Source of the DNA: Brienomyrus brachyistius
Taxonomy: Eukaryota; Chordata; Actinopteri; Osteoglossiformes; Mormyridae
NCBI RefSeq assembly: GCF_023856365.1
Contig: NW_026042445.1
Span: 124,001-188,000 of the forward strand
Reading direction: 5' to 3'
DNA length: 64,000 nt
Translations under genes and position numbers: made by a program
In this document: positions 5,034-53,000 of the stretch, in pieces
Layout: every line of letters starts with the position of its first letter
Position numbering within the stretch: the stretch's first letter is position 1
The notes under the pieces: model-generated
What the model was told of the DNA's origin: nothing
The model's database searches: none
Seen by the model: only the letters and a program-made list of their open reading frames with translations

Positions 5034-5588
5034 ATGTTCAGACTCTTTGGTCTTCTCCTTTTCATTAGTAAGGCCCTAAAATATAAATTATAAATTATTT
5101 TTGGATTTTAATATTTTCATTTCTGGTATGATGTGATCAGTGGAATTTGGCCATTTAATCTTCATCATAGTTAATAGTTATTTAGATTACTATTATATGT
5201 CTTATTTGATTATGATTTTTTTGTTTTTTTGTTTTTGCAGACACTGCACTGACTACAGATGTTGTTCAGCCCAGTCACCTGATGAGGGTTCAGCTTGGAG
5301 ACAGTGTGACCCTGACATGCTTCTGTCCAGAAGATGTTTCTTATGTTGCTTGGTTCAAACAAGCTGCTGGTCAGAAGCCCCAGCCCATGGCGAAAGCACT
5401 TCTCTACGTACCTGGTGAATTTTACAAGGAATATAAAAGCATAAAACGTTACTCCTTACTGAATGCAGAGGGGAGTTTTAACCTCACTATTTCTAACGTG
5501 GAGCCATCAGATTCTGCAGTGTATTATTGTGCTGCTGTGTTTCTTCATGAGGTCACTTTTGGGAATGGAACCTTTGTCATAATCACAG
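5034..5588 (+). CDS. NITR-like receptor: signal-peptide exon and V/J exon
   Basis: Two exons can be read. Exon 1 (5034-5067) starts with ATG, encodes the hydrophobic start of a signal peptide (MFRLFGLLLFI) and ends at a GTAAGG donor. Exon 2 (5241-5588) follows a T-rich tract and TTTTTGCAG acceptor and ends at a GTAAAT donor. The phase-1 join keeps the frame. Exon 2 encodes one V-type immunoglobulin domain, with the first cysteine in VTLTC, the tryptophan in VAWFKQ, and DSAVYYC before the second cysteine. A J-like end (FGNGTFVIITG) is encoded in the same exon, with no recombination signal seen. A germline-joined V-J exon is typical of novel immune-type receptors of teleosts; such proteins are cell-surface activating or inhibitory receptors. 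No second Ig domain, membrane segment or ITIM exon was found downstream, so this is an incomplete gene or a lone V exon. A T-cell-receptor-like relative is the main alternative. Confidence 0.7.
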
Positions 5589-6529
5589 GTAAATGAGATT
5601 CCAGCTATTTTCATATTTGATTTATTATAATGTCAGTAAGATTATTCCCTGTAAAATATTTTTGACAGTTGAGTTGTTTCTCAATATAAAATTAGCAAAG
5701 ATACCTTATTGTCTGCTTTGTTCCATAAATGTTTTTCTAAACAACAAACAAAAATAATTTATTATTATTTTTATTATTATTATTATTATACAATTTGTTG
5801 CATTTTGCTTGCTGTCAGTAATCTTCAGCCAAAAGCCTAACCTTCTCTTTATAGAGATGTTAATGTTACACATTGCAGCCTCTTTAAAACAAATAACATA
5901 GAAAAAATGTATAGGACTGTGCAAATATCTTAAGCAACAAAAGAAAATTATTTTTGAAGTTATTTATCTGAGCAGTCAGTGTGTATTCACTCTGAACAAA
6001 AATGCATGATTTAAAATAAATCATTTTATTTTAAAATGAATAAAATGATTTCAGAACTGATTTGAGAATGAAATAGTCAAATATGTATCTTAAAATTCAG
6101 GATTTTGAAATACGCATATGAACTTGAATTTCAGTTCATTTTGTTAATCTGAATTAAATTTGAATTGTGGTTGAAAACAGGTTGTGGCATTGAAATTCAT
6201 ATTTGAATTTAAAGAAGAACGAAAAAGGGTTTGGATTCAAATTCAAGTTCATATACGTACTGTAGGTGTAGCTTTTAACTATACAGTCTATTATTTAAAT
6301 ATGAATTATACATAAACACATTAACATTGTTGTCATTTTGTGCACCATGGTGGATCTGCTCATAGGAAGAACTGAGTGTCTCTCCTTAAACGTCAGTGTT
6401 GGCTGCAGTGACTGCAGTTTCTAACCTAAGAAACGTCCCAAACACTTTTCCTGCATCAAAAGTCAAACTAGTGCCTATTCCTGCCATGAAAGCTTCACAT
6501 AATGTCACTGATACCTGAGCCAATGTTTA
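5589..6529. other. Downstream of V exon, no further exon found
   Basis: The sequence is AT-rich and includes a TTA/ATT microsatellite near 5760-5790. A small inverted repeat sits at about 6115-6252: ATATGAACTTGAATTT and its complement, about 120 bp apart. I looked for a receptor stalk, membrane or cytoplasmic exon and saw none. Confidence 0.45.
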
Positions 6530-10708: not shown

Positions 10709-11592
10709 ATAGGGATGTGCACGAGTACTCGATTAATCGATTACTCGAACCCATCAGCGACGATAGAGCATGAAAATGACGATCGATTGGCTCTAAAAAT
10801 GCATTTTTTAAAATTAAACTACTTTCATTCTTTCTGATTGGTTATGCTGGTATTTGGGCGGTAGTCTGATATTTGATTGGTTACGGCTGTGAGAAATTGC
10901 GGTCTAGAGACAAGACCGGAGAACAGAGCAAAAATGGCTTCTAAAGTGCGCAGCGATGTCTGGCAACACTTTGAAAAACTTGCCGAAAAAACAGTCAAGT
11001 GCAAGATGTGCAGCGCCACACTCGTCTACAACGATGCGTTATCATCTTGCACATAAACACAAAAAGGCAGATGATACCGATGCCACTAGCAGCAGTCAGA
11101 CGAGCATAAGAGATTTCACCATCAGACAGAAATGCGACAAAGGCAGGGCAGAGAAGATGACGCAGTTAATAGCAGAAATGACAGCAGAAGACTTGCTGCC
11201 TATTACTTTTGTTGAAGGTTTTAAACGTTTAATGAATTACGTTGAGCCCCACTATACTGTCCCATCGCGCAAAACGGTCACTGCAAGGATTAACGCTCTA
11301 TACGAAAAATGCGCTTGTTCACTAAAAGACAGTCTGTCGAAGCCAGCGCGGTTGGCAATAACTACGGACTCGTGGACTTCGCTAACCACCGAATCGTATA
11401 TGACGCTAACCTGTCATTACATAAATGAATGGAAAATTCACAGCACAGTATTAGAGACGCGAGGTTTCGAGGAAAGACACACAGCTGTGAACATTGGCAA
11501 CTACCTGAAATATGTAACAGAAAAGTGGCTGTTAAGCTCTGAAAAAGTAATGGCATGTGTGCACGACAACGCTGCTAACATGGTTCTGGCAA
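10709..11592 (+). pseudogene. hAT transposase pseudogene 1 (BED finger and N-terminal half)
   Basis: A hAT-like terminus (ATAGGGATGTGCACGAGTAC) lies at about 10709. An ATG at 10934 opens a BED zinc finger, with VWQHFEKL, then CKMC as the first cysteine pair, and HLAHKH as the histidine pair. A frameshift near 11025-11035 separates the two halves of the finger. The second frame (to 11592) continues into the transposase: FVEGFKRLMNYVEP, LAITTDSWTSLTTESY with the first catalytic-type D, and CVHDNAANMVLAN with the second D context. The frame is cut at 11592, where Gypsy sequence begins. The remaining half of this transposase is not found further right. The hAT at 14361 covers the same protein region and so is a different element. 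Confidence 0.75.
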
Positions 11593-11605
11593 ATCAAAAG
11601 ACCGC

Positions 11606-14131
11606 TTGCTGAAAGCTGGTGTGATTGAGAAAATTGATGCATCACCTTGGGTTTCGCCTATTGTAGTTACAGGACGGAAAACTGGTGGAATACGAATGTG
11701 CACAGATCTCCGTGAACCAAACAAGGCTGTGGTCACAGATTGCTACCCTCTACCTCATGTGGATGAACTGCTTGCAAATTTACAAGGTGCAAAGGTGTTT
11801 TCTACAATCAATCTGGCTAATGCATACTACCAGTTGCCTCTTCATGTAGATAGCAGAGACCTTACAGCATTCATCACACATGATGGTCTGTTCCGATTCT
11901 GCAGAGTTCCTTATGGCCTCGCATCAGCCCCCTCAGCCTTCCAGAAAATGATGGCTGACATTCTCAACGGTCTTCCAGGTGTTCAAAATTATTTGGATGA
12001 CCTTATTGTCTATGGCAACTCCCCTGTTGAGCATGACCAGAACCTCAACGCTGTCCTCCAAAAGCTGAAGGAGGCTGGATTGGTTCTCAATGAGAACAAA
12101 TGTCACTTCAGGAAAACCTCCCTACGCTTCCTAGGTCATGTCATTACTGTAGATGGCATTCTTCCTGACCAAGAACACATTAATGCTGTCCTGAAAGCCC
12201 CTCCTCCATCTGACGCTGTTGCCCTGAGATCGTTTCTGGGCCTAGTGTCCTGGTATTCAAAGTTTCTGCCTAACTTTGCGACGGTTGTGGCTCCTATGCG
12301 TGCCTGTGTCAGTGAAAAAGACACATTTACATGGTCTCCTGCAGCACAAAGCAGCTTTGAGGAAGTTAAGCAACTTCTTGTGAACAGTCCTGCGCTTGCT
12401 CTTTTTAACCCTTCTCTACGACCGGTAATTTCCACAGATGCAAGTGACTATGGACTTGGAGCTGTCTTTGCACAAGTACAACCTGATGGCACAGAGAAGC
12501 CTGTGGCTTTCGCTTCCCGCACACTGACTGAAACGGAGAGGAAATACTCGACTGTTGAAAAAGAAGCACTTGCTTGTGTGTGGGCTACAGAAAAATGGAG
12601 AACATACCTGTGGGGACGTCGTTTTACTCTCCGCACAGATCACCAGGCATTGACAACACTGCTCAGCACAAAGGGAATCGGTCAGGCTGGTATGCGGGTT
12701 GCCCGCTGGTCTGCACGCCTGCTCTGTTTTGACTATGATGTTGTCTATCGACCAGGCTCCCAGAACTATACGGCTGATTGTCTCTCGCGCCTTCCCCTGC
12801 CTGCGCCTCCTGACTCTATTTCAGATTCAGAACCCGAGATGGTGGCACATATTTCTGCTGTCCTAAGCTCCCTTCCGGTGGTTGACTTCAACTCTGCTTG
12901 TTCTACTTGTCCTGAACTGTCAGCTCTGCGTTCACAAATTGAAAGTGGTTGGCTTCCATCCGTTAAATCAGTAAGTGGTGTACTAGCCCTATACTATAAG
13001 ATCAGAGATGAGCTCTCCGTTAAGGATAACTACATCCTCAGAGGCTCAAGACTCATCGTGCCACTCTCCTTACGACACACACTGATCATGCTTGCACATG
13101 AGAGTCATCAAGGAATTGTCCGCACAAAACAACGTCTGCGCGACCTCTACTGGTGGCCAAAGATGGACTCACAAGTTCAGTCTTGCATTGCTTCATGTAT
13201 ACTCTGCCAGGTTAATGATAAAACAGCTTCTACTCACCCTGCTCCTTTGCAACCAGTCCCACTGCCTGATGGACCATGGAAGAAACTTGGCCTTGATATT
13301 GCTGGACCCTTTGACACTGCAGTTGCTGCTTGTAGATACGCTATCACGCTGACAGATTATTATTCAAAGTGGCCAGAAGTTGCCTTTTCACATACCGCCA
13401 CTACTGAAGATGTTATTCACTTCCTGACATCTATTTTCTGTCGTCATGGTAACCCAGAGAACATTGTCACAGACAATGGTCCACAGTTCACCTCTGCAGC
13501 TTTTGCATCATTCCTGCACACCTATGGCATCTCCCATAGCAGAACATCAGTCTACTATCCAGCTGCTAACGGAGCTGTCGAGAGATTCCATCGTGCCCTG
13601 AGAAGCTGCATTCAAACCGCCAATCAACAGTCTCAACCATGGAATGAGACTGTTATGAACTGGCTCCAGGTGTATCGTGCAACGCCACATGCCGCAACTT
13701 CCACCTCACCATATGAACTACTTTATGGTAGGAAAATGCGCACCAAATTGGATATTCTTCCTCTGCCGTCTGCCATGTCTCCGCTGGATGTTTCTGCTCG
13801 TCGTGCAGTTCAGAGACATCAGAATAACATGCAGCATTACACAATTGCTAAAGGTGGCGCACGCATGCCTTCTTTTCGACCAGGAGAGAGAGTGAGGATA
13901 AGGAAGCCTCATCACGTCCCTAAAGCTCATCCCAGATTTACTTCCCCTACAACCGTGAGGAAGAGGATAGGTCCAAATTCTTTCTGGCTGAGTGATGGAA
14001 AAATTTGGAATGCCTCTCATCTTTTCAATTTACATTTCAATTCATTACATTTAATTACTACGTTTTCCTGTTTGCATTCACTTTGTATAGAGAGTGTATT
14101 CTTTTACAGAGAGAGATGTTATGTTCACTGA
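11606..14131 (+). CDS. pol: Gypsy pol polyprotein, K02A2.6-like: RT, RNase H, integrase
   Basis: An unbroken frame of 841 codons lacks its natural start; the upstream codons are open and the family normally begins far 5' of here. Reverse transcriptase comes first: the LLKAGVIEKIDASPWVSPIV entry motif opens the frame and the active site YLDD is at residues 129-132. RNase H follows (ISTDASDYGLGAV and TDHQALTTLL). The integrase has an H-H-C-C finger (HESHQ ... CIASCILC, about residues 496-535). Its core is DD35E, with D564 in LDIAGPF, D623 in TDNGPQF and E659 in AVERFH. The end (GPNSFWLSDGKIWNASHLF) matches the basic C-terminal region after the core. All catalytic residues are present and no stop interrupts the frame, so the lesion is the missing 5' part. 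The family is named from resemblance to K02A2.6-like fish genes. Confidence 0.9.
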   Translation: MLKAGVIEKIDASPWVSPIVVTGRKTGGIRMCTDLREPNKAVVTDCYPLPHVDELLANLQGAKVFSTINLANAYYQLPLHVDSRDLTAFITHDGLFRFCRVPYGLASAPSAFQKMMADILNGLPGVQNYLDDLIVYGNSPVEHDQNLNAVLQKLKEAGLVLNENKCHFRKTSLRFLGHVITVDGILPDQEHINAVLKAPPPSDAVALRSFLGLVSWYSKFLPNFATVVAPMRACVSEKDTFTWSPAAQSSFEEVKQLLVNSPALALFNPSLRPVISTDASDYGLGAVFAQVQPDGTEKPVAFASRTLTETERKYSTVEKEALACVWATEKWRTYLWGRRFTLRTDHQALTTLLSTKGIGQAGMRVARWSARLLCFDYDVVYRPGSQNYTADCLSRLPLPAPPDSISDSEPEMVAHISAVLSSLPVVDFNSACSTCPELSALRSQIESGWLPSVKSVSGVLALYYKIRDELSVKDNYILRGSRLIVPLSLRHTLIMLAHESHQGIVRTKQRLRDLYWWPKMDSQVQSCIASCILCQVNDKTASTHPAPLQPVPLPDGPWKKLGLDIAGPFDTAVAACRYAITLTDYYSKWPEVAFSHTATTEDVIHFLTSIFCRHGNPENIVTDNGPQFTSAAFASFLHTYGISHSRTSVYYPAANGAVERFHRALRSCIQTANQQSQPWNETVMNWLQVYRATPHAATSTSPYELLYGRKMRTKLDILPLPSAMSPLDVSARRAVQRHQNNMQHYTIAKGGARMPSFRPGERVRIRKPHHVPKAHPRFTSPTTVRKRIGPNSFWLSDGKIWNASHLFNLHFNSLHLITTFSCLHSLCIESVFFYRERCYVH

Positions 14132-19334: not shown

Positions 19335-20499
19335 TCAGAACCATATTTTACTCTACAGGCAATAGCTGGGCTGTAAGTATTGACTAATACGTATTATTAC
19401 AGCCCACTGTAAGAGGCCCGGTATTATCAAAAATCACTTGTCAACATTACAATTGACAGTAGTAAGATTTTTTCCTGCTTTAGCAGAATATGGGTTTACA
19501 AACATGCATAAGTGACAATTTGTGGGCTTATAAAAGTGCCTTTTTTTCGTGAAATTCTACTAAATCCTAAATTGTTCACTGACACGAAAACCTCATGAAG
19601 TGTTTTCATTGCTGATAAAACACCATTATCCTAATGTGCTCAAAAGGTTCTGCTTATTACAATCTGGGAAATCTCACTGATCACCAGCAAGATGTAATAT
19701 CATGCACTATTGCTTTTTGTGCAGTGGGAGCTTTAACACAAGTACTCACCCTCTGGACAATTAAAAACATATTTAGCAAAAAACTGTCGTAAATGATTAT
19801 ACTAATATTTTATACTTTTATTGGGTTAATGTTTTAAAAAACACCAGGGGGTCATTTATCACACTGCAATTAGATTCAGGTCAAGAGATTAAAACACAGA
19901 AAGCACCTGGAAAATATTTATAGCACAGTGACAAGCAGCACCACTCATATAATCAGCCATAACCATCCAATGCATATTGATCATGAATAATCATGTACTT
20001 GTCCCTGTGAAGAATGGAGGCACTTTTACAGTCTGCTGACTGCAGCCATTTGACAAGCAGGACATGAAGTCATACCAAAACAAAAAAAGGTGACATCTTA
20101 CAGTCGTGTTCTACTTGCTCTCAAACATTTTTAGTTTTGATTCAGTTTGATAAAAAGCCAACATGTAAAGCTGTTCATCTTTATGGACAAGAAACAAGAA
20201 TCCACTTTTGTCAATAGACCGACAGGTAACACTTAAAGCTTATAATTATAAAATTGATGCAAAATTATGGCGGAGGATAAGCGGTTTGAAAAATGGATGG
20301 ATGGTTTAGGGCTCCTCATTTCCTGAAAAGTCTGCCTACATTCCCATACACACTCAAGTCATTTTAAAGTTCATTCAAGGTCTTCATTCACATAAACAGG
20401 GTTGTGGATGTGCCAATGCCACCCTGGTCCATAGAAAAACAATATGTGAAATATTTTCCCACCAGTCTGAAAACCGATGAAATTGTTGCTTCATGTCTG
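19335..20499. other. Intergenic DNA left of the palindrome
   Basis: No gene was seen. A 32-bp SINE tail fragment (GATAAGCGG ... ATGGATGG) lies at 20273-20304. The last six bases, TGTCTG (20494-20499), are the left copy of the palindrome's target duplication. Confidence 0.5.
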
Positions 20500-20520
20500 A
20501 GAGATATTACCTGGTACCTT

Positions 20521-20735
20521 GGGCGGAGCTTAATTCTCCGCTTCTGACGTCATAAGAGGAAGTGGCTTATCCTTGATTCTGATTGGTCGGGGGTTTATGC
20601 CCATATATGGTATCAATACATGCTTATGCCACGTGCTGCCGATAGGGGGCGATATGGTTTTGGGAGATTGCCGTTATGTCCACATATGGTATCAATACAT
20701 GCTTATGCCACGTGTTGCCGATAGGGTGGTTTGAG
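20521..20735 (+). promoter_or_regulatory. Promoter-like motif cluster near the left terminus (mirrored right)
   Basis: Within 220 bp of the terminus lie a GC-rich GGGCGGAGC (20521), a perfect CRE TGACGTCA (20545-20552), an inverted CCAAT box (ATTGG, 20582) and a perfect CArG/SRF box CCATATATGG (20601-20610). An E-box CACGTG follows. The CArG to E-box segment is duplicated with a 79-bp period (ATATGG at 20605 and 20684), with the second CArG degenerate. The same cluster is mirrored at the right end (CRE 29759-29766, CArG 29701-29710). Function is inferred from motifs only. Confidence 0.4.
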
Positions 20736-21284
20736 AGATTAATAGAATAAAAATACATTACGTGTATTTTATTAATGTGCTTTTTTTAATTACGTTTTTA
20801 AGGAATAATAAAACATAGAGCAGGATGAAGACAAGCTAGCGCATACACGTTCAGCGGGGGCGTCCGTCCGGCCCGTAGCCGCGTGTTGTTAGTAAGCGCC
20901 GCGGCGTATTTTAAAAAAGAAAGCACCCAAATGTTTTAAAAGAAAGCACCAAAATGTTTTAAAAGAAGAAAGATCCAAAAGAAGAAAACCATTAGTGTTA
21001 TTTTAAAAGAAAAAGCAGGGTGAATTTTAACAAACATGCCCGAAAGAAGCAGCAGAAGAGCAAATTTAAACAAGCGAAAACAACAAACAAGCCCGTCGTT
21101 TTAAAAGAAGCTATCACTCATTACATTTAACCAACACGAAAGACTTTAGTTATATTTACCAGGTTGAAGAAAGCATGCAAGCGGCAAACTTTTAGAAGAA
21201 ATAGGACGAAACGATCCCGGAGCACTGCCACATGCGACTACTCTGTTTGAACAACGCGGGGCGGAATGGCCGATCGCTAGTCCG

Positions 21285-21340
21285 GCGTTTGGCGCATGCG
21301 CACCCACGCCGCCTCCCCTTTCAAAATGGCGACGCCGACG
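21285..21340 (+). promoter_or_regulatory. CpG-rich NRF1/YY1-like island inside the arm
   Basis: A CpG-rich patch in otherwise AT-rich DNA holds the NRF1-type palindrome GCGCATGCGC (21292-21301) and the YY1-like AAAATGGCGAC (21323-21333). The mirror copies are at 29010-29019 and 28978-28988. These motifs are typical of constitutive vertebrate promoters. No transcript can be assigned. Confidence 0.3.
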
Positions 21341-24300
21341 GAGCGCCTGTTTTAGCAAATAAAACACCTATAGCCGTAATGTTTTTAAGGAATGAAGCAC
21401 TTTTCTGCCAATGTGAATAATAAAGTAAAGCGCTCTGTGCATTTTCGACAGCAATAATCAAAGAATAACGCGGTTAATTCTTGTTTAAACGAATGCATAC
21501 TCTCACTCTCGTGTGGCGCACGCGCGTAGATCCACACAGCATTTCCTTTATTGAGCCAGCTCGTTGCGTGAAGCAGTTGTCAAATGGCTACCAGCGGAAG
21601 TTGTTGTCGTGATGCGAACCGTTGGCCTGGATTGTGAGAAGTATGCCGCCATTCTGGCAGAATGCACACCAATTCTATATTTTATATGCTTATTTGTAAA
21701 TAGTGTAAAATAATCTATTTCTAATTTAAATAAAAGTCGATCTCTAACCCCCCCGGATTGCTTAGCTAAATTTATCTACGTATGGTTAATCAAAAGGTAT
21801 AACCAGAACTTGAAAAGATGTATGACAACACATGCTGATCTTTTATTTCAAATAAGCCTCTTTAAACTCATCGTTTTTAAGCAATGAAACTCTTTTCGGC
21901 TAATGTGTTATTTAAAATAAAACATCTTAAGCATTTCGACAACAAGAATCAAGGAATAACGCTGGCGATCCTTGTTAAAATAACTCTCCATGTCGCGCTT
22001 GTGCGTGCAGCCACGATACCCACACACCACTGTCTTTTATTGAAAACGGCTGAGGCAAGTCGTTTTCGGAACTTTAAAGTGTGTATACAACAAGTAAACG
22101 TGTGTAAAAGAAGTATAAAATGTGTTATAAAGCACATAGCCAACGTTAATTAATAAAGAATTTAAGCATAATAGCCCAGACGTACCACGGCCTAAAGCCG
22201 GTAGAAAAAGAGCTATCCTACGTGCCTACAAGAGAAAAGCATATGGCACCAAATTGGAATCAGTAGTCGTTAAAAGAATATGAATTTATCAATGCGACAT
22301 TTTAAATACGTTTTAAGGCATAATAATTTTAAGGGGTCACCGGGCGCGTCGAGCTTTTCTAGCTAGAGAGGAAAGAGTCGGGCAGTTTTGAATGGTAAAA
22401 GCAGTAGTTGTGTATTGTTAACGGTTTATTTTTTAACAAAATGTCCTATTTTATAACGGTAAAAACACAGCAATCCTGTTTTTAGGGGGGATTTATGCGC
22501 ATTGCATGTCTAGACATGTCGATCAGCTAATGTCCGCGGCAGTGGGAAACGGGTCGTAGGCGCGAGAGCGATAAGCCTATGTGAAGGAAGCGTCAATTGA
22601 CAAATTGTTGCAGAGTGCGTGTAACATCCCGTTTAACCGCTGGTCCCGAGTGTGACAAGCAGACAGACAGCATTCACGCCCCGGCAGAAAGCACATTACG
22701 TCTATTTGTTAATCAGTTATATTATTTTATACTATTTACGAATAAATGTCTAATTGAAATAAAAGTCGATGTCTAACACCACAGCTCTGGGACTCTAGCA
22801 TAGCCCCGGGCGCCCCGCTGCGGGCCTGTGGGGCTGGATGAAGTATCTAACTTCAATTGCTTAATCAGCAGGGTAAAGTGCCGTAACTTAAACGGGGGTA
22901 TGACAAATTAGTATAAAGTTTTAAGCCAATAAGATTTAATTAATAAAATAATTTAGTTGTATTTTGTTAGTTTTATTTTCAATAAAACACACCCAGCGCA
23001 TTATTAATTTAATAGATGCAGGAACTAGTGAGCGGTATTTAGCTACGTACTTCAAAAACATTTAAAAAACTTTGTTAGACTAATACCTTAGTTATTTTAA
23101 TAATTTAAGGGATAAAAACATTTGTCGTGTTTGTCAATGTGTTATTTTAAGTAAATGCGTTATTTTCCAACGCCAAAAGCCCTGTCATGTTTTAAGTGAG
23201 AAATGATATGGACTGGCAACTCTCTCTGGGGGGAGCAACCCCGGTTAGGTACTATTAAGCAGCATTTAGTGACATGCATCAAAACACATTTTTAGAAACT
23301 TTGAAAGAATAAAGTCTTAGTTATTTTAATAAATACGTTTTTCAGTAAATGTTTATTCACGCGCATGCACACAAACACCCACACACACCCCGGAGGTCGG
23401 GGGGCTTTAGAGTTTAACTTTAGGTTGCTGATCGCGATGTGTGACTAAACCCCAAAGCACCCTAACTTAGTCGTTTACTAACTTATCGCGAAAAACAGAC
23501 AGAAATAGACTTGTAAATTCTAAAGAAAAGACATTAACTGTTTTTTGTTAATGTTTAAAGGTATACAAACTACAGTTGTATCGGACACGCACACAAAAAC
23601 ACTAAAAGAGTTTTGCTCAGTCAAAAAACAGCAAACATATATTGTTCACGCTTTTTATTAAAATGTATAAGGATTGTTTTGTTATACGGAAATTTTAAAT
23701 TAATATGAGTGGGATATAAGTCATTTAGGCAACAAGATTTGAGGAAGAACCTAAATAGTGGCTGGAAATGACCGACCAGGCAGGCAGAAGTTTGCTTTCC
23801 TTATCTCACAAGTCATGGAAGGGTGGGGGGGGGGGGGGGGGGGGGGACACATAAGTGGGGGGTAGGAACTGTGGAATCAGGCAGGGGTGTAAGAATTTAG
23901 GATATAGTCTTGTTATTTTAAAGAAGGTGTGCATGATTATTTAATTACTTTTAATAGGAACCAGTAAGATGCATTTAGCACCATGTTGCAAATACACATT
24001 GAAAACTTTAAAGAATAAGGTCATAGTTATTTTAATAAAGACATCCTACAAGGTGCCCACGGCCATAACTTATATAATCTACAAGCTTGATCCGAGATGC
24101 TTGCTGGAGTACAATGCTAAGCTGACATCGGTAACGGAGCTGCAGCCTGTTTGATAGTTAATGAAACATAGTTCAAATTCAACAGTGTCAGCAGTCATCC
24201 ACGATGCAGGGAGACTACAGATTGACTATAACGACCCCGTTTATCAGCTGGCATTATTTAAATTTTTTTTGACAGAATAAAGCCTTAGTTATTTTAATAA

Positions 24301-24631
24301 ATATGTTTTTTCAGTAAATGTGTATTCATGCTCAAGTGCACAAACACACACACACCGATGGTCAGGGGCTTTAGAGTTTAACTTTAGGTCTGTGAAAGTA
24401 TAGGACCGCGATGTGTATACAGGCACCAAAACATATTAACTTAGTCGTTCATGAGTCTTATTGTGAAAAACCACGCAAAATAGACATGTAAATTTTAAAG
24501 AAAAGACATTAACTGCTTTTGTTAATGTTTAATTGTATAAAAACTTTAGATGTGGTTGTTAAACAGTCAAACAAAAATGTGTTATTTTAAAGTAGTATAA
24601 AATATAACCTTAACTTTGGACGCAAGATGAA

Positions 24632-25677
24632 GGACAGGGCCTCCAAGTCTTATGAAAGGTCTTTAAGGACCATCCAGTTCTGGTGGCCGTTTGGGAAATG
24701 AGGAAACAACTTTTGCACAAAGTGTCTGCTTTGAAATAAATGAAAGAGATGTTTCTTTGGCATGTTATGCTTGCCTGCTAGGATTGTGACTGTTGCGAAC
24801 ACTCCATCCTCATATAAACTAATAGTGTTGATCCAATTTTTCTGGCCATTTAAGAAAAGCAGCTAAAGTTTTTATACATTTCAACATTAACAAAAGCTGT
24901 TAATGTCTTTTCTTTAAAATTTACAAGTCTATATTGTCGGTTTTTCACAATAAGACTCATGAACGACTAAGTTAATATGTTTTGGGGTCTGAATACACAT
25001 AACAATCCTATACTTTCACTGACCTAAAGTTAAACTCTAAAGCCCCTGACCACCGATGTGTGTGTGTGTTTGTGCACATGCGTATGAACAACCATGTACT
25101 GGAAAAAACGTATTTATTAAAATAACTAAGGCTTTATTCTGTCAAAATTCTTAAAAAATAAGGACCCAACGGTTAAATGGGGTACTATAGTCACTCTCTA
25201 GTCTCCCTGCATGCAGGCTGCATCTCAGTTACCATTGTCAACTTAACATGGTACTCCATCTAGCCTCTCAAATCATGATAGTAGACGCTATAAGCTTGGG
25301 CCGTGGTATACCTTGTAGGATGTCTTTATTAAAATAACTATGCCTGATTCCACAGTTCCTACACCCCCCTACACTTCCATGACTTGTGAGATAAGAAAAG
25401 CAGACTTCTGTCTGCCTGGTCGATCATTTCTAGCCGCTACTTAGGTTCTTCCTCAAATCTTGTTGCCTAAATGATTTATATCACAATCATACTAATTTAA
25501 AATTGCGCTCTAACAGAGCGATCCTTACACATTTTAATAAAAAACGTAAACTATATGGGTCTGATATTTTTTTGATTGAGCAAACTCTAAAAGCCCACCT
25601 TTGGTTGTGTGCTTGTGCGCTTGCTTGGGGCTTTGCTGTGTGTTTGTGTGTGTCTGTCTGTCTGTGTTTGTAGGTTG
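24632..25677. repeat. Palindrome loop with an extra diverged repeat unit
   Basis: The loop between the arms is not unique DNA. From about 24860 it is a diverged copy of the arm sequence at 25765-26740, in the orientation of the right arm. The landmark TAATGTCTTTTCTTTA is at 24901, 25798 and 26775 (spacing 897 and 977), with two inverted copies in the left arm ending at 24511 and 23537. The centre therefore has two units on the left and three on the right. 24632-24860 has no counterpart that I could see. Confidence 0.7.
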
Positions 25678-28600
25678 TTCATCTTGCGTCCAAAGTTAAG
25701 GTTATATTTTATACTACTTTAAAATAACACATTTTTGTTTGACTGTTTAACAACCACATCTAAAGTTTTTATACAATTAAACATTAACAAAAGCAGTTAA
25801 TGTCTTTTCTTTAAAATTTACATGTCTATTTTGCGTGGTTTTTCACAATAAGACTCATGAACGACTAAGTTAATATGTTTTGGTGCCTGTATACACATCG
25901 CGGTCCTATACTTTCACAGACCTAAAGTTAAACTCTAAAGCCCCTGACCATCGGTGTGTGTGTGTTTGTGCACTTGAGCATGAATACACATTTACTGAAA
26001 AAACATATTTATTAAAATAACTAAGGCTTTATTCTGTCAAAAAAAATTTAAATAATGCCAGCTGATAAACGGGGTCGTTATAGTCAATCTGTAGTCTCCC
26101 TGCATCGTGGATGACTGCTGACACTGTTGAATTTGAACTATGTTTCATTAACTATCAAACAGGCTGCAGCTCCGTTACCGATGTCAGCTTAGCATTGTAC
26201 TCCAGCAAGCATCTCGGATCAAGCTTGTAGATTATATAAGTTATGGCCGTGGGCACCTTGTAGGATGTCTTTATTAAAATAACTATGACCTTATTCTTTA
26301 AAGTTTTCAATGTGTATTTGCAACATGGTGCTAAATGCATCTTACTGGTTCCTATTAAAAGTAATTAAATAATCATGCACACCTTCTTTAAAATAACAAG
26401 ACTATATCCTAAATTCTTACACCCCTGCCTGATTCCACAGTTCCTACCCCCCACTTATGTGTCCCCCCCCCCCCCCCCCCCACCCCACCCTTCCATGACT
26501 TGTGAGATAAGGAAAGCAAACTTCTGCCTGCCTGGTCGGTCATTTCCAGCCACTATTTAGGTTCTTCCTCAAATCTTGTTGCCTAAATGACTTATATCCC
26601 ACTCATATTAATTTAAAATTTCCGTATAACAAAACAATCCTTATACATTTTAATAAAAAGCGTGAACAATATATGTTTGCTGTTTTTTGACTGAGCAAAA
26701 CTCTTTTAGTGTTTTTGTGTGCGTGTCCGATACAACTGTAGTTTGTATACCTTTAAACATTAACAAAAAACAGTTAATGTCTTTTCTTTAGAATTTACAA
26801 GTCTATTTCTGTCTGTTTTTCGCGATAAGTTAGTAAACGACTAAGTTAGGGTGCTTTGGGGTTTAGTCACACATCGCGATCAGCAACCTAAAGTTAAACT
26901 CTAAAGCCCCCCGACCTCCGGGGTGTGTGTGGGTGTTTGTGTGCATGCGCGTGAATAAACATTTACTGAAAAACGTATTTATTAAAATAACTAAGACTTT
27001 ATTCTTTCAAAGTTTCTAAAAATGTGTTTTGATGCATGTCACTAAATGCTGCTTAATAGTACCTAACCGGGGTTGCTCCCCCCAGAGAGAGTTGCCAGTC
27101 CATATCATTTCTCACTTAAAACATGACAGGGCTTTTGGCGTTGGAAAATAACGCATTTACTTAAAATAACACATTGACAAACACGACAAATGTTTTTATC
27201 CCTTAAATTATTAAAATAACTAAGGTATTAGTCTAACAAAGTTTTTTAAATGTTTTTGAAGTACGTAGCTAAATACCGCTCACTAGTTCCTGCATCTATT
27301 AAATTAATAATGCGCTGGGTGTGTTTTATTGAAAATAAAACTAACAAAATACAACTAAATTATTTTATTAATTAAATCTTATTGGCTTAAAACTTTATAC
27401 TAATTTGTCATACCCCCGTTTAAGTTACGGCACTTTACCCTGCTGATTAAGCAATTGAAGTTAGATACTTCATCCAGCCCCACAGGCCCGCAGCGGGGCG
27501 CCCGGGGCTATGCTAGAGTCCCAGAGCTGTGGTGTTAGACATCGACTTTTATTTCAATTAGACATTTATTCGTAAATAGTATAAAATAATATAACTGATT
27601 AACAAATAGACGTAATGTGCTTTCTGCCGGGGCGTGAATGCTGTCTGTCTGCTTGTCACACTCGGGACCAGCGGTTAAACGGGATGTTACACGCACTCTG
27701 CAACAATTTGTCAATTGACGCTTCCTTCACATAGGCTTATCGCTCTCGCGCCTACGACCCGTTTCCCACTGCCGCGGACATTAGCTGATCGACATGTCTA
27801 GACATGCAATGCGCATAAATCCCCCCTAAAAACAGGATTGCTGTGTTTTTACCGTTATAAAATAGGACATTTTGTTAAAAAATAAACCGTTAACAATACA
27901 CAACTACTGCTTTTACCATTCAAAACTGCCCGACTCTTTCCTCTCTAGCTAGAAAAGCTCGACGCGCCCGGTGACCCCTTAAAATTATTATGCCTTAAAA
28001 CGTATTTAAAATGTCGCATTGATAAATTCATATTCTTTTAACGACTACTGATTCCAATTTGGTGCCATATGCTTTTCTCTTGTAGGCACGTAGGATAGCT
28101 CTTTTTCTACCGGCTTTAGGCCGTGGTACGTCTGGGCTATTATGCTTAAATTCTTTATTAATTAACGTTGGCTATGTGCTTTATAACACATTTTATACTT
28201 CTTTTACACACGTTTACTTGTTGTATACACACTTTAAAGTTCCGAAAACGACTTGCCTCAGCCGTTTTCAATAAAAGACAGTGGTGTGTGGGTATCGTGG
28301 CTGCACGCACAAGCGCGACATGGAGAGTTATTTTAACAAGGATCGCCAGCGTTATTCCTTGATTCTTGTTGTCGAAATGCTTAAGATGTTTTATTTTAAA
28401 TAACACATTAGCCGAAAAGAGTTTCATTGCTTAAAAACGATGAGTTTAAAGAGGCTTATTTGAAATAAAAGATCAGCATGTGTTGTCATACATCTTTTCA
28501 AGTTCTGGTTATACCTTTTGATTAACCATACGTAGATAAATTTAGCTAAGCAATCCGGGGGGGTTAGAGATCGACTTTTATTTAAATTAGAAATAGATTA

Positions 28601-29811
28601 TTTTACACTATTTACAAATAAGCATATAAAATATAGAATTGGTGTGCATTCTGCCAGAATGGCGGCATACTTCTCACAATCCAGGCCAACGGTTCGCATC
28701 ACGACAACAACTTCCGCTGGTAGCCATTTGACAACTGCTTCACGCAACGAGCTGGCTCAATAAAGGAAATGCTGTGTGGATCTACGCGCGTGCGCCACAC
28801 GAGAGTGAGAGTATGCATTCGTTTAAACAAGAATTAACCGCGTTATTCTTTGATTATTGCTGTCGAAAATGCACAGAGCGCTTTACTTTATTATTCACAT
28901 TGGCAGAAAAGTGCTTCATTCCTTAAAAACATTACGGCTATAGGTGTTTTATTTGCTAAAACAGGCGCTCCGTCGGCGTCGCCATTTTGAAAGGGGAGGC
29001 GGCGTGGGTGCGCATGCGCCAAACGCCGGACTAGCGATCGGCCATTCCGCCCCGCGTTGTTCAAACAGAGTAGTCGCATGTGGCAGTGCTCCGGGATCGT
29101 TTCGTCCTATTTCTTCTAAAAGTTTGCCGCTTGCATGCTTTCTTCAACCTGGTAAATATAACTAAAGTCTTTCGTGTTGGTTAAATGTAATGAGTGATAG
29201 CTTCTTTTAAAACGACGGGCTTGTTTGTTGTTTTCGCTTGTTTAAATTTGCTCTTCTGCTGCTTCTTTCGGGCATGTTTGTTAAAATTCACCCTGCTTTT
29301 TCTTTTAAAATAACACTAATGGTTTTCTTCTTTTGGGTCTTTCTTCTTTTAAAACATTTTGGTGCTTTCTTTTAAAACATTTGGGTGCTTTCTTTTTTAA
29401 AATACGCAGCGGCGCTTACTAACAACACGCGGCTACGGGCCGGACGGACGCCCCCGCTGAACGTGTATGCGCTAGCTTGTCTTCATCCTGCTCTATGTTT
29501 TATTATTCCTTAAAAACGTAATTAAAAAAAGCACATTAATAAAATACACGTAATGTATTTTTATTCTATTAATCTCTCAAACCACCCTATCGGCAACACG
29601 TGGCATAAGCATGTATTGATACCATATGTGGACATAACGGCAATCTCCCAAAACCATATCGCCCCCTATCGGCAGCACGTGGCATAAGCATGTATTGATA
29701 CCATATATGGGCATAAACCCCCGACCAATCAGAATCAAGGATAAGCCACTTCCTCTTATGACGTCAGAAGCGGAGAATTAAGCTCCGCCCAAGGTACCAG
29801 GTAATATCTCT
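25678..29811 (-). repeat. Right arm of the palindrome
   Basis: Reverse complement of 20500-24631, beginning at TTCATCTTGCGTCC (pairs with 24618-24631). It contains two of the three right-hand 0.9-1.0-kb units, the C run at 26463-26481, and the mirrored promoter-like motifs. Confidence 0.9.
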
Positions 29812-30025
29812 TGTCTGTCTGTCCTGGACCGAATTAGAGATCTTTCCTCTAAAATAAATAAATAAATATATAAAATTAAGGATCCTACAGACAGGAATCA
29901 CTACAAAACAAGGTGTTGACATGCTGTCACTGGCCAACAGAATGCAAGATTATAGTTGGATAGTTTGGATGCTTCACTGCAATTCTGCTTATTTTGACTT
30001 TGAGCTGGTGCTAACATGGATATAA

Positions 30026-46919: not shown

Positions 46920-46992
46920 GGTAGTGCGGCCAAGGCGCTGGATTTAGGCTCCAGTCTCTTCGGAGGCGTGGGTCTGAATCCCACCGCTGCCA
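46920..46992 (+). pseudogene. tRNA-Leu(TAG) pseudogene
   Basis: The segment starts GGTAGTGCGGCC and ends CCACCGCTGCCA, the paired acceptor ends of vertebrate tRNA-Leu. The anticodon arm with TAG (CTGGATTTAGGCTCCAG), the variable arm TCTCTTCGGAGG and the T arm are recognisable. About nine bases of the D arm are deleted (73 nt instead of about 82). The T loop reads GGTCTGAATCC in place of GGTTCGAATCC, breaking the B box. It is therefore not expected to be a working tRNA. Confidence 0.8.
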
Positions 46993-47081: not shown

Positions 47082-50000
47082 ATATTAGCATATTAGCATA
47101 TTAGCATATTAGCATAGCGTGTTAGCATATTAGCGTATTAGCATATTAGCATATTAGCATATTAGCATATTAGCATATTAGCATAGCGTGTTAGCATATT
47201 AGCATATTAGTATATTAGGATGTTAACATATTAGCATATTAGCATATTAGCATAGCGTGTTAGCATATTAGCGTATTAGCATATTAGCATAGCATATTAG
47301 CATATTAGCATATTAGCATATTAGCATATTAGCATAGCATATTAGCATATTAGCATATTAGCATATTAGCATATTAGCATATTAGCATAGCATATTAGCA
47401 TATTAGCATATTAGCATAGCGTGTTAGCATATTAGCATATTAGCATATTAGCATATTAGCATATTAGCATATTAGCATAGCATATTAGCATATTAGCATA
47501 TTAGCATATTAGCATAGCATATTAGCATATTAGCATATTAGCATATTAGCATATTAGCATAGCATATTAACATATTAGCATATTAGCATATTAGCATATT
47601 AGCATATTAGCATAGCGTGTTAGAATATTAGCGTATTAACATAGCATATTAGCATAGCATATTAGCATATTAGCATATTAGCATATTAGCATAGCGTGTT
47701 AGCATATTAGCGTATTAGCATATTAGCATATTAGCATAGCATATTAGCATATTAGCATATTAGCATATTAGCATATTAGCATAGCATATTAACATATTAG
47801 CATATTAGCATATTAGCATATTAGCATAGCGTGTTAGAATATTAGCGTATTAACATAGCATATTAGCATAGCATATTAGCATATTAGCATATTAGCATAT
47901 TAGCATAGCGTGTTAGCATATTAGCATATTAGCGTATTAGCATAGCATATTAGCATAGCATATTAGCATATTAGCATAGCATATTAGCATAGCGTGTTAG
48001 CATATTAGCGTATTAGCATATTAGCATATTAGCATAGCATATTAGCATATTAACATATTAGCATATTAGCATAGCGTGTTAGCATATTAGCGTATTAGCA
48101 TATTAGCATATTAACATAGCATATTAGCATATTAGCATATTAGCATATTAGCATATTAGCATAGCGTGTTAGCATATTAGCGTATTAGTGTATTAGCATA
48201 TTAGCATATTAGCATATTAGCATATTAGCATATTTGCATATTAGCATAGCGTGTTAGCATATTAGCGTATTAGTATATTAGCATATTAGCATAGTGTGTT
48301 AGCATATTAGCGTATTAGCATATTAGCATATTAGCATAGCATATTAGCATATTAGCATATTAGCATAGCGTGTTAGCATATTAGCGTATTAGCATATTAG
48401 CATATTAGCATATTAGCATAGCGTGTTAGCATATTAGCGTATTAGCATATTAGCATATTAGCATATTAGCATAGCATATTAGCATATTAGCATATAAGCA
48501 TATTAGCATAGCATATTAGCATATTAGCATATTAGCATAGCATATTAGCATATTAGCATATTAGCATAGCGTGTTAGCATATTAGCATATTAGCATATTA
48601 GCATATTAGCATAGCATATTAGCATATTAGCATATTAGCATAGCATATTAGCATATTAGCATATTAGCATATTAGCATAGCATATTAACATATTAGCATA
48701 TTAGCATATTAGCATATTAGCATAGCGTGTTAGCATATTAGCGTATTAGCATATTAGCATATTAGCATACCATATTAGCATATTAGTATATTAGCATATT
48801 AGCATAGCGTGTTAGCATATTAGCATATTAGCATATTAGCATATTAGCATAGCGTGTTAACATAGCGGATTAGCATATTAGCATATTAGCATAGCATATT
48901 AGCATATTAGCATATTAGCATAGCATATTAGCATATTAGCATAGCGTGTTAGCATATTAGCATATTAGCATATTAGCATAGCGTGTTAGCATATTAGCGT
49001 ATTAGCATATTAGCATATTAGCATAGCATATTAGCATATTAGCATATTAGCACATTAGCATAGCGTGTTAGCATATTAGCGTATTAGCATATTAGTATAT
49101 TAGCATAGCATATTAGCATATTAGCATATTAGCATATTAGCATATTAGCATAGCGTGTTAGCATATTAGCGTATTAGCATATTAGCATATTAGCATAGCA
49201 TATTAGCATATTAGCATATTAGCATAGCGTGTTAGCATATTAGTAATTAGCATATTAGCATATTAGCATAGCATATTAGCATATTAGCATATTAGCATAT
49301 TAGCATAGCGTGTTAGCATATTAGCATATTAGTATATTAGGATATTAACATATTAGCATATTAGCATATTAGCATATTAGCATAGCGTGTTAGCATATTA
49401 GCGTATTAGCATATTAGCATAGCATATTAGCATATTAGCATATTAGCATATTAGCATATTAGCATAGCATATTAGCATATTAGCATATTAGCATATTAGC
49501 ATAGCGTGTTAGCATATTAGCATATTAGCATATTAGCATATTAGCATAGCATATTAGCATATTAGCATATTAGCATAGTATATTAGCATATTAGCATATT
49601 AGCATATTAGCATATTAGCATAGCATATTAGCATAGCGTGTTAGCATATTAGTGTATTAGCATATTAGCATATTAGCATAGCATATTAGCATATTAGCAT
49701 ATTAGCATATTAGCATATTAGCATATTAGCATAGCGTGTTAGCATATTAGCGTATTAGCATAGCATATTAGCATAGCATATTAGCATATTAGCATATTAG
49801 CATAGCGTGTTAGCATATTAGCGTATTAGCATATTAGCATAGCATATTAGCATATTAGCATATTAGCATATTAGCATATTAGCATATTAGCATAGCATAT
49901 TAGCATATTAGCATATTAGCATAGCGTGTTAGCATATTAGCATATTAACATATTAGCATAGCATATTAGCATAGCGTGTTAGCATATTAGCATATTAGCA

Positions 50001-53000
50001 TAGCATAAAATATTAGCATATTAACATATTAGCATATTAGCATATTAGCATATTAGCATAGCGTGTTAGCATATTAGCGTATTAGCATATTAGCATATTA
50101 GCATATTAGCATTGCGTGTTAGCATATTAGCGTATTAGCATATTAGCATATTAGCATATTAGCATAGCATATTAGCATATTAACATAGCATATTAGCATA
50201 TTAGCATATTAGCATAGCGTGTTAGCATAGCGTATTAGCATATTAGCATGTTAGCATAGCATATTAGCATATTAGCATATTAGCATAGCGTGTTAGCATA
50301 TTAGCGTATTAGCATATTAGCATATTAGCATATTAGCATATTTGCATATTAGCATAGCGTGTTAGCATATTAGCGTATTAGCATATTAGCATATTAGCAT
50401 ATTAGCATAGCGTGTTAACATATTAGCGTATTAGCATATTAGCATATTAGCATAGCATATTAGCATATTAGCATATTAGCATAGCGTGTTAGCATATTAG
50501 CATATTAGCATATTAGCATAGCATATTAGCATATTAGCATATTAGCATATTAGCATAGCGTGTTAGCATATTAGCGTATTAGCATATTAGCATAGCATAT
50601 TAGCATAGCGTGTTAGCATATTAGCGTATTAGCATATTAGCATATTAGCATAGCATATTAGCATATTAGCATATTAGCATATTAGCATATTAGCATATTA
50701 GCGTAGCGTGTTAGTATATTAGCGTGTTAGCATATTAGCATATTAGCATATTAGCATATTAGCATAGCGTGTTAACATAGCGGATTAGCATATTAGCATA
50801 GCATATTAGCATATTAGCATATTAGCATATTAGCATATTAGCATAGCATATTAGCATATTAGCATAGCGTGTTAGCATATTAGCGTATTAGCATATTAGC
50901 ATATTAGCATATTAGCATATTAGCATAGCATATTAGCATATTAGCATATTAGCATATTAGCATAGCGTGTTAGCATATTAGCGTATTCGCATATTAGCAT
51001 ATTAGCATAGCATATTAGCATATTAGCATATTAGCATATTAATATATTAATATATTAGCATATTAGCATATTAGCATATTAGCATATTAGCATAGCGTGT
51101 TAGCATATTAGCAATTAGCATATTAGCATATTAGCATATTAGCATAGCATATTAGCATATTAGCATATTAGCATATTAGCATATTAGCATAGCGTGTTAG
51201 CATATTAGCATATTAGTATATTAGGATATTAGGATAGCATATTAGCATATTAGCATATTAATATATTAGCATATTAGCATAGCGTGTTAGCATATTAGCG
51301 TATTAGCATATTAGCATAGCATATTAGCATATTAGCATATTAGCATATTAGCATAGCATATTAGCATATTAGCATATTAACATATTAGCATATTAGCATA
51401 GCGTGTTAGCATATTAGCATATTAGCATATTAGCATATTAGCATATTAGCATAGCATACTAGCATATTAGCATATTAGTATATTAGCATATTAGCATATT
51501 AGCATAGCATATTAGCATATTAGCATATTAGCATAGCGTGTTAGCATATTAACGTATTAGCATATTAGCATATTAGCATATTAGCATATTAGCATAGCGT
51601 GTTAGCATATTAGCGTATTAGCATAGTATATTAGCATAGCATATTAGCATATTAGCATATTAGCATATTAGCATATTAGCATATTAGCATTGCGTGTTAG
51701 CATATTAGCGTATTAGCAAATTAGCATATTATCATAGCATATTAGCATATTAACATATTAGCATATTTGCATATTAGCATATTAGCATAGCGTGTTAGCA
51801 TATTAGCGTATTAGCATATTAGCATATTAGCATAGCATATTAGCATATTAGCATATTAGCATATTAGCATATTAGTATAGCGTGTTAGCATATTAGCGTA
51901 TTAGCATATTAGCATATTAGCATATTAGCATAGCATATTTGCATATTAGCATATTAGCATATTTGCATATTAGCATAGCGTGTTAGCATATTAGCGTATT
52001 AGCATATTAGCATATTAGCATATTAGCATAGCGTGTTAGCATATTAGCGTATTAGAATATTAGCATATTAGCATAGCATATTAGCATATTAGCATATTAG
52101 CATATTAGCATATTAGCATAGCGTGTTTGCATATTAGCGTATTAGCATATTAGCATATTAGCATATTAGCATATTAGCATAGCGTGTTAGCATATTAGCG
52201 TATTAGAATATTAGCATATTAACATAGCATATTAGCATATTAGCATAGCATATTAGCATAGCGTGTTAGCATATTAGCGTATTAGCATATTAGCATATTA
52301 GCATAGCATAGCATATTAGCATATTAGCATAGCGTATTTGCATATTAGCGTATTAGCATATTAGCATATTAGCATATTAGCATAGCGTGTTAGCATATTA
52401 GCGTATTAGAATATTAGCATATTAGCATAGCATATTAGCATATTAGCATATTAGCATATTAGCATAGCGTGTTAGCATATTAGCGTATTAGCATATTAGC
52501 ATATTAGCATAGCATATTAGCATATTAGCATAGCGTGTTAGCATATTAGCGTATTAGCATATTAGCATATTAGCATACCATATTAGCATATTAGCATATT
52601 AGCATATTAGCATATTAGCATAGCGTGTTAGCATATTAGCATATTAGCATAGCGTGTTATAGCGGATTAGCATATTAGCATAGCATATTAGCATATTAGC
52701 ATATTAGCATAGCATATTAGCATATTAGCATATTAGTATAGCGTGTTAGCATATTAGCATATTAGCATATTAGCATATTAGCATAGCGTGTTAGCATATT
52801 AGCGTATTAGCATATTAGCATAGCATATTAGCATATTAGCCTATTAGCATATTAGCATAGCGTGTTAGCATATTAGCGTATTAGCATATTAGTATATTAG
52901 CATAGCATATTAGCATATTAGCATATTAGCATATTAGCATATTAGCATAGCGTGTTAGCGTATTAGCATATTAGCATATTAGCATAGCATATTAGCATAT

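What the first reader, a model, noticed from the sequence alone, without database searches (positions are those of the whole stretch)
20494..29817. 9.3-kb near-perfect palindrome bounded by a 6-bp target duplication: a candidate new foldback transposon class
Seen: arms of about 4.13 kb are reverse complements with few differences, and TGTCTG lies directly outside both ends (20494-20499, 29812-29817). The ends are AGAGATATTACC and its complement. No protein domain is visible. Known: 6-bp duplications with AG-type ends and long inverted repeats are Polinton/Maverick traits, and Dada elements also make 6-7-bp duplications. Neither is known to consist almost wholly of 4-kb inverted repeats. Inferred: this may be a non-autonomous derivative or an undescribed family. 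The near-identity of the arms implies youth or gene conversion. An assembly fold-back artefact is less likely, because the symmetry stops exactly at the duplicated 6-mer and the loop is asymmetric.
Basis: partly seen in the sequence, partly recalled or inferred. Interest (0 to 1): 0.88.

Follow-up and report, generated by a model that had tools for sequence, protein, structure and literature searches.

The report
Mirror-image, gene-less Polinton satellite transposon
This 9.3-kb stretch of a likely fish genome is one of many mirror-image mobile elements, nearly all without genes in the copies read, that share their ends with virus-like Polinton elements in the same genome; they were likely moved by Polinton enzymes, and one half of each copy is probably recopied from the other when the element multiplies.

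Summary
The palindrome is real: arms of 4,132 and 4,134 bp differ by two substitutions and one 2-bp indel, with TGTCTG outside both ends. It is not a new class. The same genome holds many copies (40 scored of 1,041 candidates). Ten of 11 loci testable by script have a 6-bp target duplication, against 2 of 110 mismatched controls. The outer 1.09 kb is the terminal repeat of a 24.7-kb Polinton/Maverick in this genome with integrase-chromodomain, DNA polymerase B and a penton-like protein. The palindromes are non-coding Polinton satellites; one, C294, is fused to a Polinton polymerase gene.

The surprise is the symmetry. Three copies are palindromic almost through the centre with arms of about 6 kb; a 64-bp core is shared by 12 of 14 loci. 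Arms within a copy are closer than to any other locus in 18 of 19 comparisons; C13b is the exception. Both arms carry the same indels and mosaic joins. I infer fold-back copying during replication; gene conversion after insertion is not excluded. The window copy lacks 1,345 bp of centre relative to a second contig of its locus, which makes its 'loop'.

The parts
20494..20499 (.). left copy of the 6-bp target duplication TGTCTG
20500..24631 (+). left arm of the palindrome (4,132 bp)
20500..21588 (+). outer 1,089 bp of the left arm, homologous to the terminal inverted repeats of the 24.7-kb Polinton on C4 (93-94%)
20595..20726 (+). two 53-bp subterminal direct repeats (20595-20647, 20674-20726), 94% alike
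21589..24631 (+). arm body without long open frames and without a match of 150 bp or more to the Polinton interior pieces; holds about 970-bp internal direct repeats (23290-23580 with 24268-24553)
24632..25677 (.). single-copy 'loop' (1,046 bp): inner arm sequence left unpaired by the central deletion; its left edge 24631/24632 is the deletion junction
24849..25588 (-). older, diverged inverted copy (76-86%) of parts of arm positions 23607-24563: trace of an earlier inverted duplication
25678..29811 (-). right arm of the palindrome (4,134 bp)
28723..29811 (-). outer 1,089 bp of the right arm, the other Polinton-type terminal inverted repeat
29812..29817 (.). right copy of the 6-bp target duplication TGTCTG

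Best explanation
The 9.3-kb palindrome is one copy of a dispersed, mostly gene-less element family that shares its 1.1-kb ends with a full-size Polinton/Maverick of the same genome; it was likely inserted by Polinton integrase, and its two arms are predicted to be remade as copies of one another by strand fold-back during replication. Shown: copies at different sites with 6-bp duplications, ends shared with a coding Polinton, one common 64-bp centre, arms of a copy closer to each other than to any other locus (C13b excepted), the same indels in both arms, and, in three of seven profiled copies, residual arm differences lying chiefly beside the centre. Inferred: Polinton proteins act in trans. 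A new strand passes the 64-bp core, anneals back on its own first arm and copies it to the end (or a hairpin heteroduplex is repaired), so the second arm becomes a copy of the first, and the linear product is inserted with a 6-bp duplication.
For: Multicopy: terminal query 40 scored of 1,041 candidates, 9 opposite-strand pairs; arm-body query 40 of 1,126, 14 pairs, 12 of 14 with equal score in both arms, although five of those pairs are probable segmental duplicates and two are contigs of the window's locus. Target duplications: 10 of 11 scripted loci, control 2 of 110. Ends: window arm 1-1089 matches the C4 Polinton ends at 93-94%; that element has rve 2.6e-12, Chromo 1.4e-11 and DNA_pol_B_2 1.8e-23. 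Integrase frames without stops: 26 of 29 at 95% or more identity. Arm body 1250-2700: 0 differences between arms in 7 of 9 rows (window and C103, one locus, both counted), 1/1460 in C35, 64/1004 in C13b; median to others 3.2-6.8%. Within-copy distance below the nearest other locus in 18 of 19 comparisons. L and R arms are sisters in 9 of 9 (ends) and 8 of 8 (body) with C103 left out. Indels of 5 bp or more in both arms: 58 of 68 and 43 of 48; between elements 48% and 42%. Core in 12 of 14 loci, 0 of 5 Polinton pieces, arm alleles beside it swapped in C25 and C16. C19: 0 mismatches in the outer 6.0 kb, 6 in the last 300 bp. C294 joins a palindrome to the right part of a Polinton at 98-99% identity.
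Against: No step of replication or transposition was observed. Near-identical arms and a flipped centre can also come from gene conversion and recombination between arms after insertion. C4b fits one-step copying poorly: 22 of 858 differences in the outer arm but 0 of 1,453 in the body. In C29a only 5 of 12 arm differences, and in C35 2 of 4, lie in the innermost stretch. In C13b the arms (6.37% apart) are not closer than the nearest other locus (5.74%) by raw distance, although a tree pairs them. C27 has no target duplication, and C13b showed none by eye. The polymerase frame listed inside the C4 piece is 446 aa; no complete gene was shown. Most of the arm body has no known source. C294 and C13b hold long open frames.
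Confidence: 0.66

Rival explanations
1. The family is a Polinton satellite with an ancestral palindrome, but the arms are kept identical in the chromosome by gene conversion between the arms after insertion, as in long inverted repeats of sex chromosomes (recalled comparison).
For: C4b has a homogenised middle between diverged outer ends, and C29a has differences along the arm; conversion tracts would give such patterns. Template switching between inverted repeats also homogenises arms and flips spacers (PMC8604942, passages).
Against: C13b has arms 6.4% apart and the terminal repeats of the 24.7-kb Polinton are 2.4% apart, so copies can age without being homogenised. L and R ends are sisters in the C4 and C29b elements too, although they lie 24.7 and 10.8 kb apart. 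C13b has also lost one side of its centre, which could have freed it from conversion.
Confidence: 0.28
2. Assembly artefact: fold-back reads or collapsed arms created the symmetry.
For: Two contigs of the window's locus differ by 1,345 bp at the palindrome centre although 10 kb of flanks show no substitution, so at least one version may be mis-assembled.
Against: Loci show distinct flanks and 6-bp duplications, a common core and element-specific sequence shared by both arms.
Confidence: 0.03
3. A foldback class independent of Polintons (such as Dada-like or P/Galileo-like) that captured Polinton ends.
For: The arm body beyond the terminal repeat is not found in the C4 or C29b Polinton pieces except as short stretches, mostly 70-84% alike in the part of the list shown.
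Against: Both ends are Polinton ends, Polinton-size duplications follow, and the window copy has no frame over 90 aa. Five palindromes carry left-specific and right-specific Polinton subterminal sequence in their arms, the right-specific stretch at 96-99%, and C294 runs into a Polinton.
Confidence: 0.03

Closest known systems
Polinton/Maverick (vertebrate Mavericks; fish adintoviruses)
   Same: 6-bp target duplications, AG-type short reiterated ends in many copies, terminal repeats shared with a coding element carrying integrase-chromodomain, PolB and a 260-aa protein related (46% identity) to 'penton [Pimephales minnow adintovirus]'; that was the fifth of 108 hits, the four better ones unnamed (PMC8097293, passages and section 7)
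   Different: No genes in most copies. Inverted repeats of 4.1-6.3 kb make up nearly the whole element; the survey gives 46-1,447 bp for intact vertebrate Mavericks (PMC8097293 section 7).
Galileo (P superfamily) and other Foldback-like elements of Drosophila
   Same: Copies made only of long, internally repetitive inverted repeats, with 98-100% identity between the two repeats of one copy (PMC3573991, passages)
   Different: Galileo is bounded by 7-bp duplications and belongs to the P superfamily; its repeat changes are discussed there as break repair. No cross-match was tested here.
Template switching between inverted repeats
   Same: Homogenises arms and inverts spacers (PMC8604942, passages)
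   Different: Described there for short repeats in yeast coding sequence, not for whole 10-kb elements.
Defective adenovirus genomes with one end duplicated at the other (recalled; the searches listed no paper on it)
   Same: Protein-primed linear DNA that can fold back on its ends
   Different: A virus-stock phenomenon, not a dispersed genomic family.

Membership tests
Polinton/Maverick (autonomous) | 6-bp target site duplication | tested here: met
   10 of 11 scripted loci (two of them the coding C4 and C29b elements), control 2 of 110; C27 none; C13b, judged by eye, none
Polinton/Maverick (autonomous) | Ends with short reiterated motif such as (AG)3//(CT)3 | tested here: inconclusive
   Window ends AGAGAT..., one C4 Polinton end AGAGAGAT...; other copies have (AT)n or (A)n ends (motif list)
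Polinton/Maverick (autonomous) | Encodes PolB, integrase, ATPase and capsid proteins | tested here: not met
   No frame over 90 aa in the window copy; 17 of 19 palindromic pieces have none over 127 aa. Exceptions: C294, fused to Polinton PolB, and C13b, a 325-aa frame without Pfam match. The C4 relative encodes PolB and integrase; its ATPase match is below the curated cut-off.
Polinton/Maverick (autonomous) | Terminal repeats within the surveyed 46-1,447 bp | tested here: not met
   4.1-6.3 kb arms
Non-autonomous derivative of a Polinton | Shares termini with a coding Polinton of the same genome | tested here: met
   arm 1-1089 against C4 and C29b ends, 89-94%
Non-autonomous derivative of a Polinton | Mobilised by Polinton proteins in trans | not testable with these tools
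   inferred from shared ends and duplication length
   Window copy only: the one Rfam match in the window is a tRNA at 46920-46992, not at the insertion. Other loci were not tested.
Galileo/P superfamily | 7-bp duplication | tested here: not met
   In the window copy the boundary of the symmetry leaves exactly 6 bp. The 7-8-bp script matches at C19, C355, C35 and C4b run one or two bases into the element end.

The most novel reading that the evidence does not exclude
A palindromic satellite of a virus-like transposon that behaves like a natural hairpin replicon: at each round one whole 5-6-kb arm is rewritten from the other by fold-back at a conserved 64-bp hinge, so every insertion is born a near-perfect mirror and its arm divergence is a clock. 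This would be a genomic fingerprint of Polinton DNA replicating through a single-stranded, adenovirus-like intermediate.
Probability: 0.4. Interest if true: 0.8.

Novelty: new variant of a known kind. Interest (0 to 1): 0.64.

Why it matters
That Polintons replicate as linear protein-primed DNA is, to my knowledge, inferred from their genes (recalled; the PolB gene itself is described in PMC6431247, passages). A multicopy family whose body is a mirror and whose arms are homogenised within each copy gives a sequence record in which that step can be tested. It also shows how a gene-less parasite can live on virus-like elements in a vertebrate genome, and it places long palindromes, which are known to be unstable, at many sites.

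Tried and rejected
Nothing similar was found in phage or plasmid records. Dada and P/Galileo were rejected on target site and duplication length. Assembly artefact was rejected for the family, but left open for the 9.3-kb versus 10.65-kb difference at this locus and for the C294 join. Polinton coding remnants in the arms: 197 frames against four arm pieces gave five short matches, all in the first 80 bp of the C1 piece (its DNA list cut at 2,500 characters). Polinton interior DNA, matches of 150 bp or more: 2 of 25 pieces, C294 and the coding C214. The empty-site search for three loci did not complete. A search with the window's loop was dropped unanswered. The integrase search was answered only. 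Literature: ten searches, of which I saw listings with titles and abstract starts (at most 20 papers each); none named a palindromic Polinton satellite, and five exact phrases for non-autonomous or defective Polintons or Mavericks had no hit. Only open-licence PMC papers were searched.
Full report
Observation. The window is position 124001-188000 of contig C165 of an unnamed 985-Mb assembly. The mirror is exact to the stated coordinates: arms 20500-24631 and 25678-29811 with two substitutions and one 2-bp indel, TGTCTG outside both ends. The interior has no open frame over 90 aa, and the only Rfam match in the window is a tRNA at 46920, far away.

Copies. The first 401 bp find the same end elsewhere in the genome: 1,041 candidates, 40 scored, with nine opposite-strand pairs 9-25 kb apart. 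A query from the arm body gave 40 scored of 1,126: 28 of those 40 form 14 opposite-strand pairs and 12 are single in that list. Pairs on C35 and C395 recur at about 59.4 kb with the same score, and three hits on C13 lie 129 and 132 kb apart, so these look like segmental duplicates, not independent insertions. The lists are capped; I give no copy number.

Target sites. Of 12 loci taken into the script, C13b lacked a readable anchor at its right end. Of the other 11, ten have a duplication of 6 bp or slightly more with the right geometry, each different, and C27 has none. Pairing the left flank of one locus with the right flank of another gave 2 of 110. By eye C13b, an old copy, shows none. The matches of 7-8 bp at C19, C355, C35 and C4b run into the element end; 6 bp is the common length.

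The same locus twice. Contig C103 holds the window's flanks in opposite orientation with no substitution in two 5-kb flanks, only 9 gap positions, and a 10,653-bp version of the element. Relative to it the window copy lacks 1,345 bp spanning the centre. The window's 1,046-bp 'loop' equals inner arm sequence of C103. Whether these are alleles or two assemblies of one haplotype cannot be told.

Anatomy of the family. C19, C355 and C29a are palindromic almost through their centre, with arms of about 6 kb; the strict unpaired centre is 64 bp in C294 and 111 bp in C19 and C355. A 64-bp asymmetric core is found in 12 of 14 loci examined (one, C13a, keeps a single arm). It is missing from C1, C4b and the window and from all five Polinton pieces searched. 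This argues for a single origin of the palindrome. The arms contain older traces of a similar process: an inverted copy at 76-86% within the inner arm, and about 970-bp direct repeats. The longest stop-to-stop frame is 79-127 aa in 17 of 19 palindromic pieces. In C13b a 325-aa frame without Pfam match lies in an insertion in one inner arm.

Relation to Polintons. A 24.7-kb element on C4 and a 10.8-kb one on C29 share only their ends, about 1.07 kb, with the palindromes. The C4 element, read in three separate pieces, encodes a 365-aa protein with rve and chromodomain, a 446-aa PolB frame, a protein with a sub-threshold poxvirus A32 ATPase match, and a 260-aa protein related to a penton of Pimephales minnow adintovirus at 46% identity. 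A 391-aa frame in capsid position has no Pfam match. Integrase and penton frames and the ATPase-polymerase pair face each other on opposite strands, as described for vertebrate Mavericks. An integrase search scored 112 of 1,281 candidates: 29 at 95% or more identity, 26 of them without stops; 8 intermediate; 75 of a second family at 54-55%, 73 of them without stops. Likely helpers thus exist in the genome.

Exchange with Polintons. Five palindromes (C29a, C1, C4b, C25, C16) carry, just inside the terminal repeat, about 36 bp of left-specific and then right-specific Polinton subterminal sequence, the latter at 96-99%. Weak repeats of Polinton end sequence (mostly 70-84%) occur deeper in the arm. 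C294 is a hybrid: left arm, core and the inner part of the right arm, then from L040 position 8,810 the PolB gene of a Polinton, broken at the join (DNA_pol_B_2, 2.8e-25), at 98-99% identity to the C4 element; 2.5 kb further on, L047 matches the right part of the same element at 96%. Among 25 pieces, including the window, only C294 and the coding C214 hold 150 bp or more of Polinton interior. Both kinds of element have thus recombined recently, unless the C294 join is an assembly error.

Symmetry within copies. In arm positions 1250-2700, seven of nine rows (window and C103, one locus, both counted) have zero differences between arms, C35 has 1/1460 and C13b 64/1004; median distance to other elements is 3.2-6.8%. 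In the outer 1,089 bp the palindromes other than C4b differ by 0-0.18% between arms; C4b by 22/858, the C4 Polinton by 25/1031 and the C29b element by 5/1022. With C103 and the window treated as one locus, the arms are closer to each other than to any other locus in 18 of 19 comparisons; C13b is not (6.37% within, 5.74% to the nearest other). In trees without C103, left and right arms are sisters in 9 of 9 elements (outer part) and 8 of 8 (body, C13b included), many because the arms are identical. Loci can share a body and differ at the ends: C19 and the window differ at 1/1450 in the body but 18/1061 in the outer part, in each of the three arm combinations tried. Indels of 5 bp or more agree between arms in 58 of 68 and 43 of 48 cases, against 48% and 42% between elements; the disagreements lie in C29b, C35, C4b, C4pol and C13b.

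Where arms still differ (seven elements profiled). C19: none in 6.0 kb, then 6 in the last 300 bp. C355: none in 5.5 kb, then 6. C103: 1 outside, 6 in the last 203 bp. C1: none in 6.08 kb. C29a is less clean: 12 in about 6.25 kb, 5 of them in the last 252 bp. C35 has 4, two of them in its innermost stretch. C4b is different: 29 in the outer 0.9 kb aligned, 1 in the next 3.0 kb, and strong divergence at the centre. Next to the core two arm alleles exist; relative to the core they are arranged one way in C19, C355, C29a, C27 and C209, the other way in C25 and C16, and are the same on both sides in C294 and C13a; C35, C103 and C13b have one altered side.

Mechanism. Inference: a strand-displacing, protein-primed round (as adenoviruses do, recalled, and as the PolB suggests) makes single strands. 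A palindromic strand folds on itself. If the growing end crosses the 64-bp core, pairs with the arm it has just made and copies that to the terminus, the product is a mirror with old differences left only beside the core. Repair of a hairpin heteroduplex would do the same. The product would then be inserted by the Polinton integrase with a 6-bp duplication. Conversion between arms after insertion explains much of this too. Against it stand the copies that aged without homogenisation and the sister relation of the far-apart ends of the C4 and C29b elements; for it stand C4b and the scatter in C29a. I put replication-linked copying ahead, not proven.

Known or new. Vertebrate Mavericks, their 6-bp duplications and end motifs are described (PMC8097293, passages and section 7). 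Drosophila Galileo copies made only of long repeats, with repeats 98-100% alike within a copy, are described (PMC3573991, passages). The listings of my ten searches named no palindromic Polinton satellite; Repbase and subscription papers were not available. I class it as a new variant of a known kind.

Noticed in passing
window 47082-58594 and 62166-64000: An 8-bp satellite (ATATTAGC)n of more than 11 kb, interrupted at 58804-62016 by an open 1,070-aa frame with endonuclease and reverse transcriptase domains (LINE).
   Followed up: partly
window 11579-14131: An 850-aa open frame with reverse transcriptase, RNase H and integrase domains, Gypsy-like order.
   Followed up: partly
window 5216-5596: An immunoglobulin V-set exon (E 8.2e-17).
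   Followed up: no
own genome: A second Polinton family (54-55% integrase identity) with 73 of 75 scored integrase frames free of stops; of the 29 close copies of the first family, 15 lie on C2 between 34.7 and 45.4 Mb.
   Followed up: no
C294, L040 around 8,810, and L047: A palindrome whose right arm is replaced from its middle by the right part of a Polinton, breaking the polymerase gene at the join.
   Followed up: partly
C13b, L045 3648-4625: A 325-aa open frame without Pfam match in an insertion in one inner arm of an old palindrome.
   Followed up: partly
C40 (L053) against C294 (L040) and the window: A mosaic: outer part 0.66% from C294 but 5.44% from the window copy; arm body 0.55% from the window copy but 2.81% from C294.
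   Followed up: partly
C2:5260900-5272631: A copy with an extra outer arm stretch on both sides, as if one palindrome were nested in or fused to another.
   Followed up: no
C35, C395, C13: Palindrome copies at about 59.4-kb and about 130-kb spacing, probably carried along in segmental duplications.
   Followed up: no
element ends across loci: The last bases vary within one family: AGAGATATT, ATATATATATT or AAAAAAAGG, all short reiterations, as expected if protein-primed initiation slides back on terminal repeats (recalled idea).
   Followed up: partly
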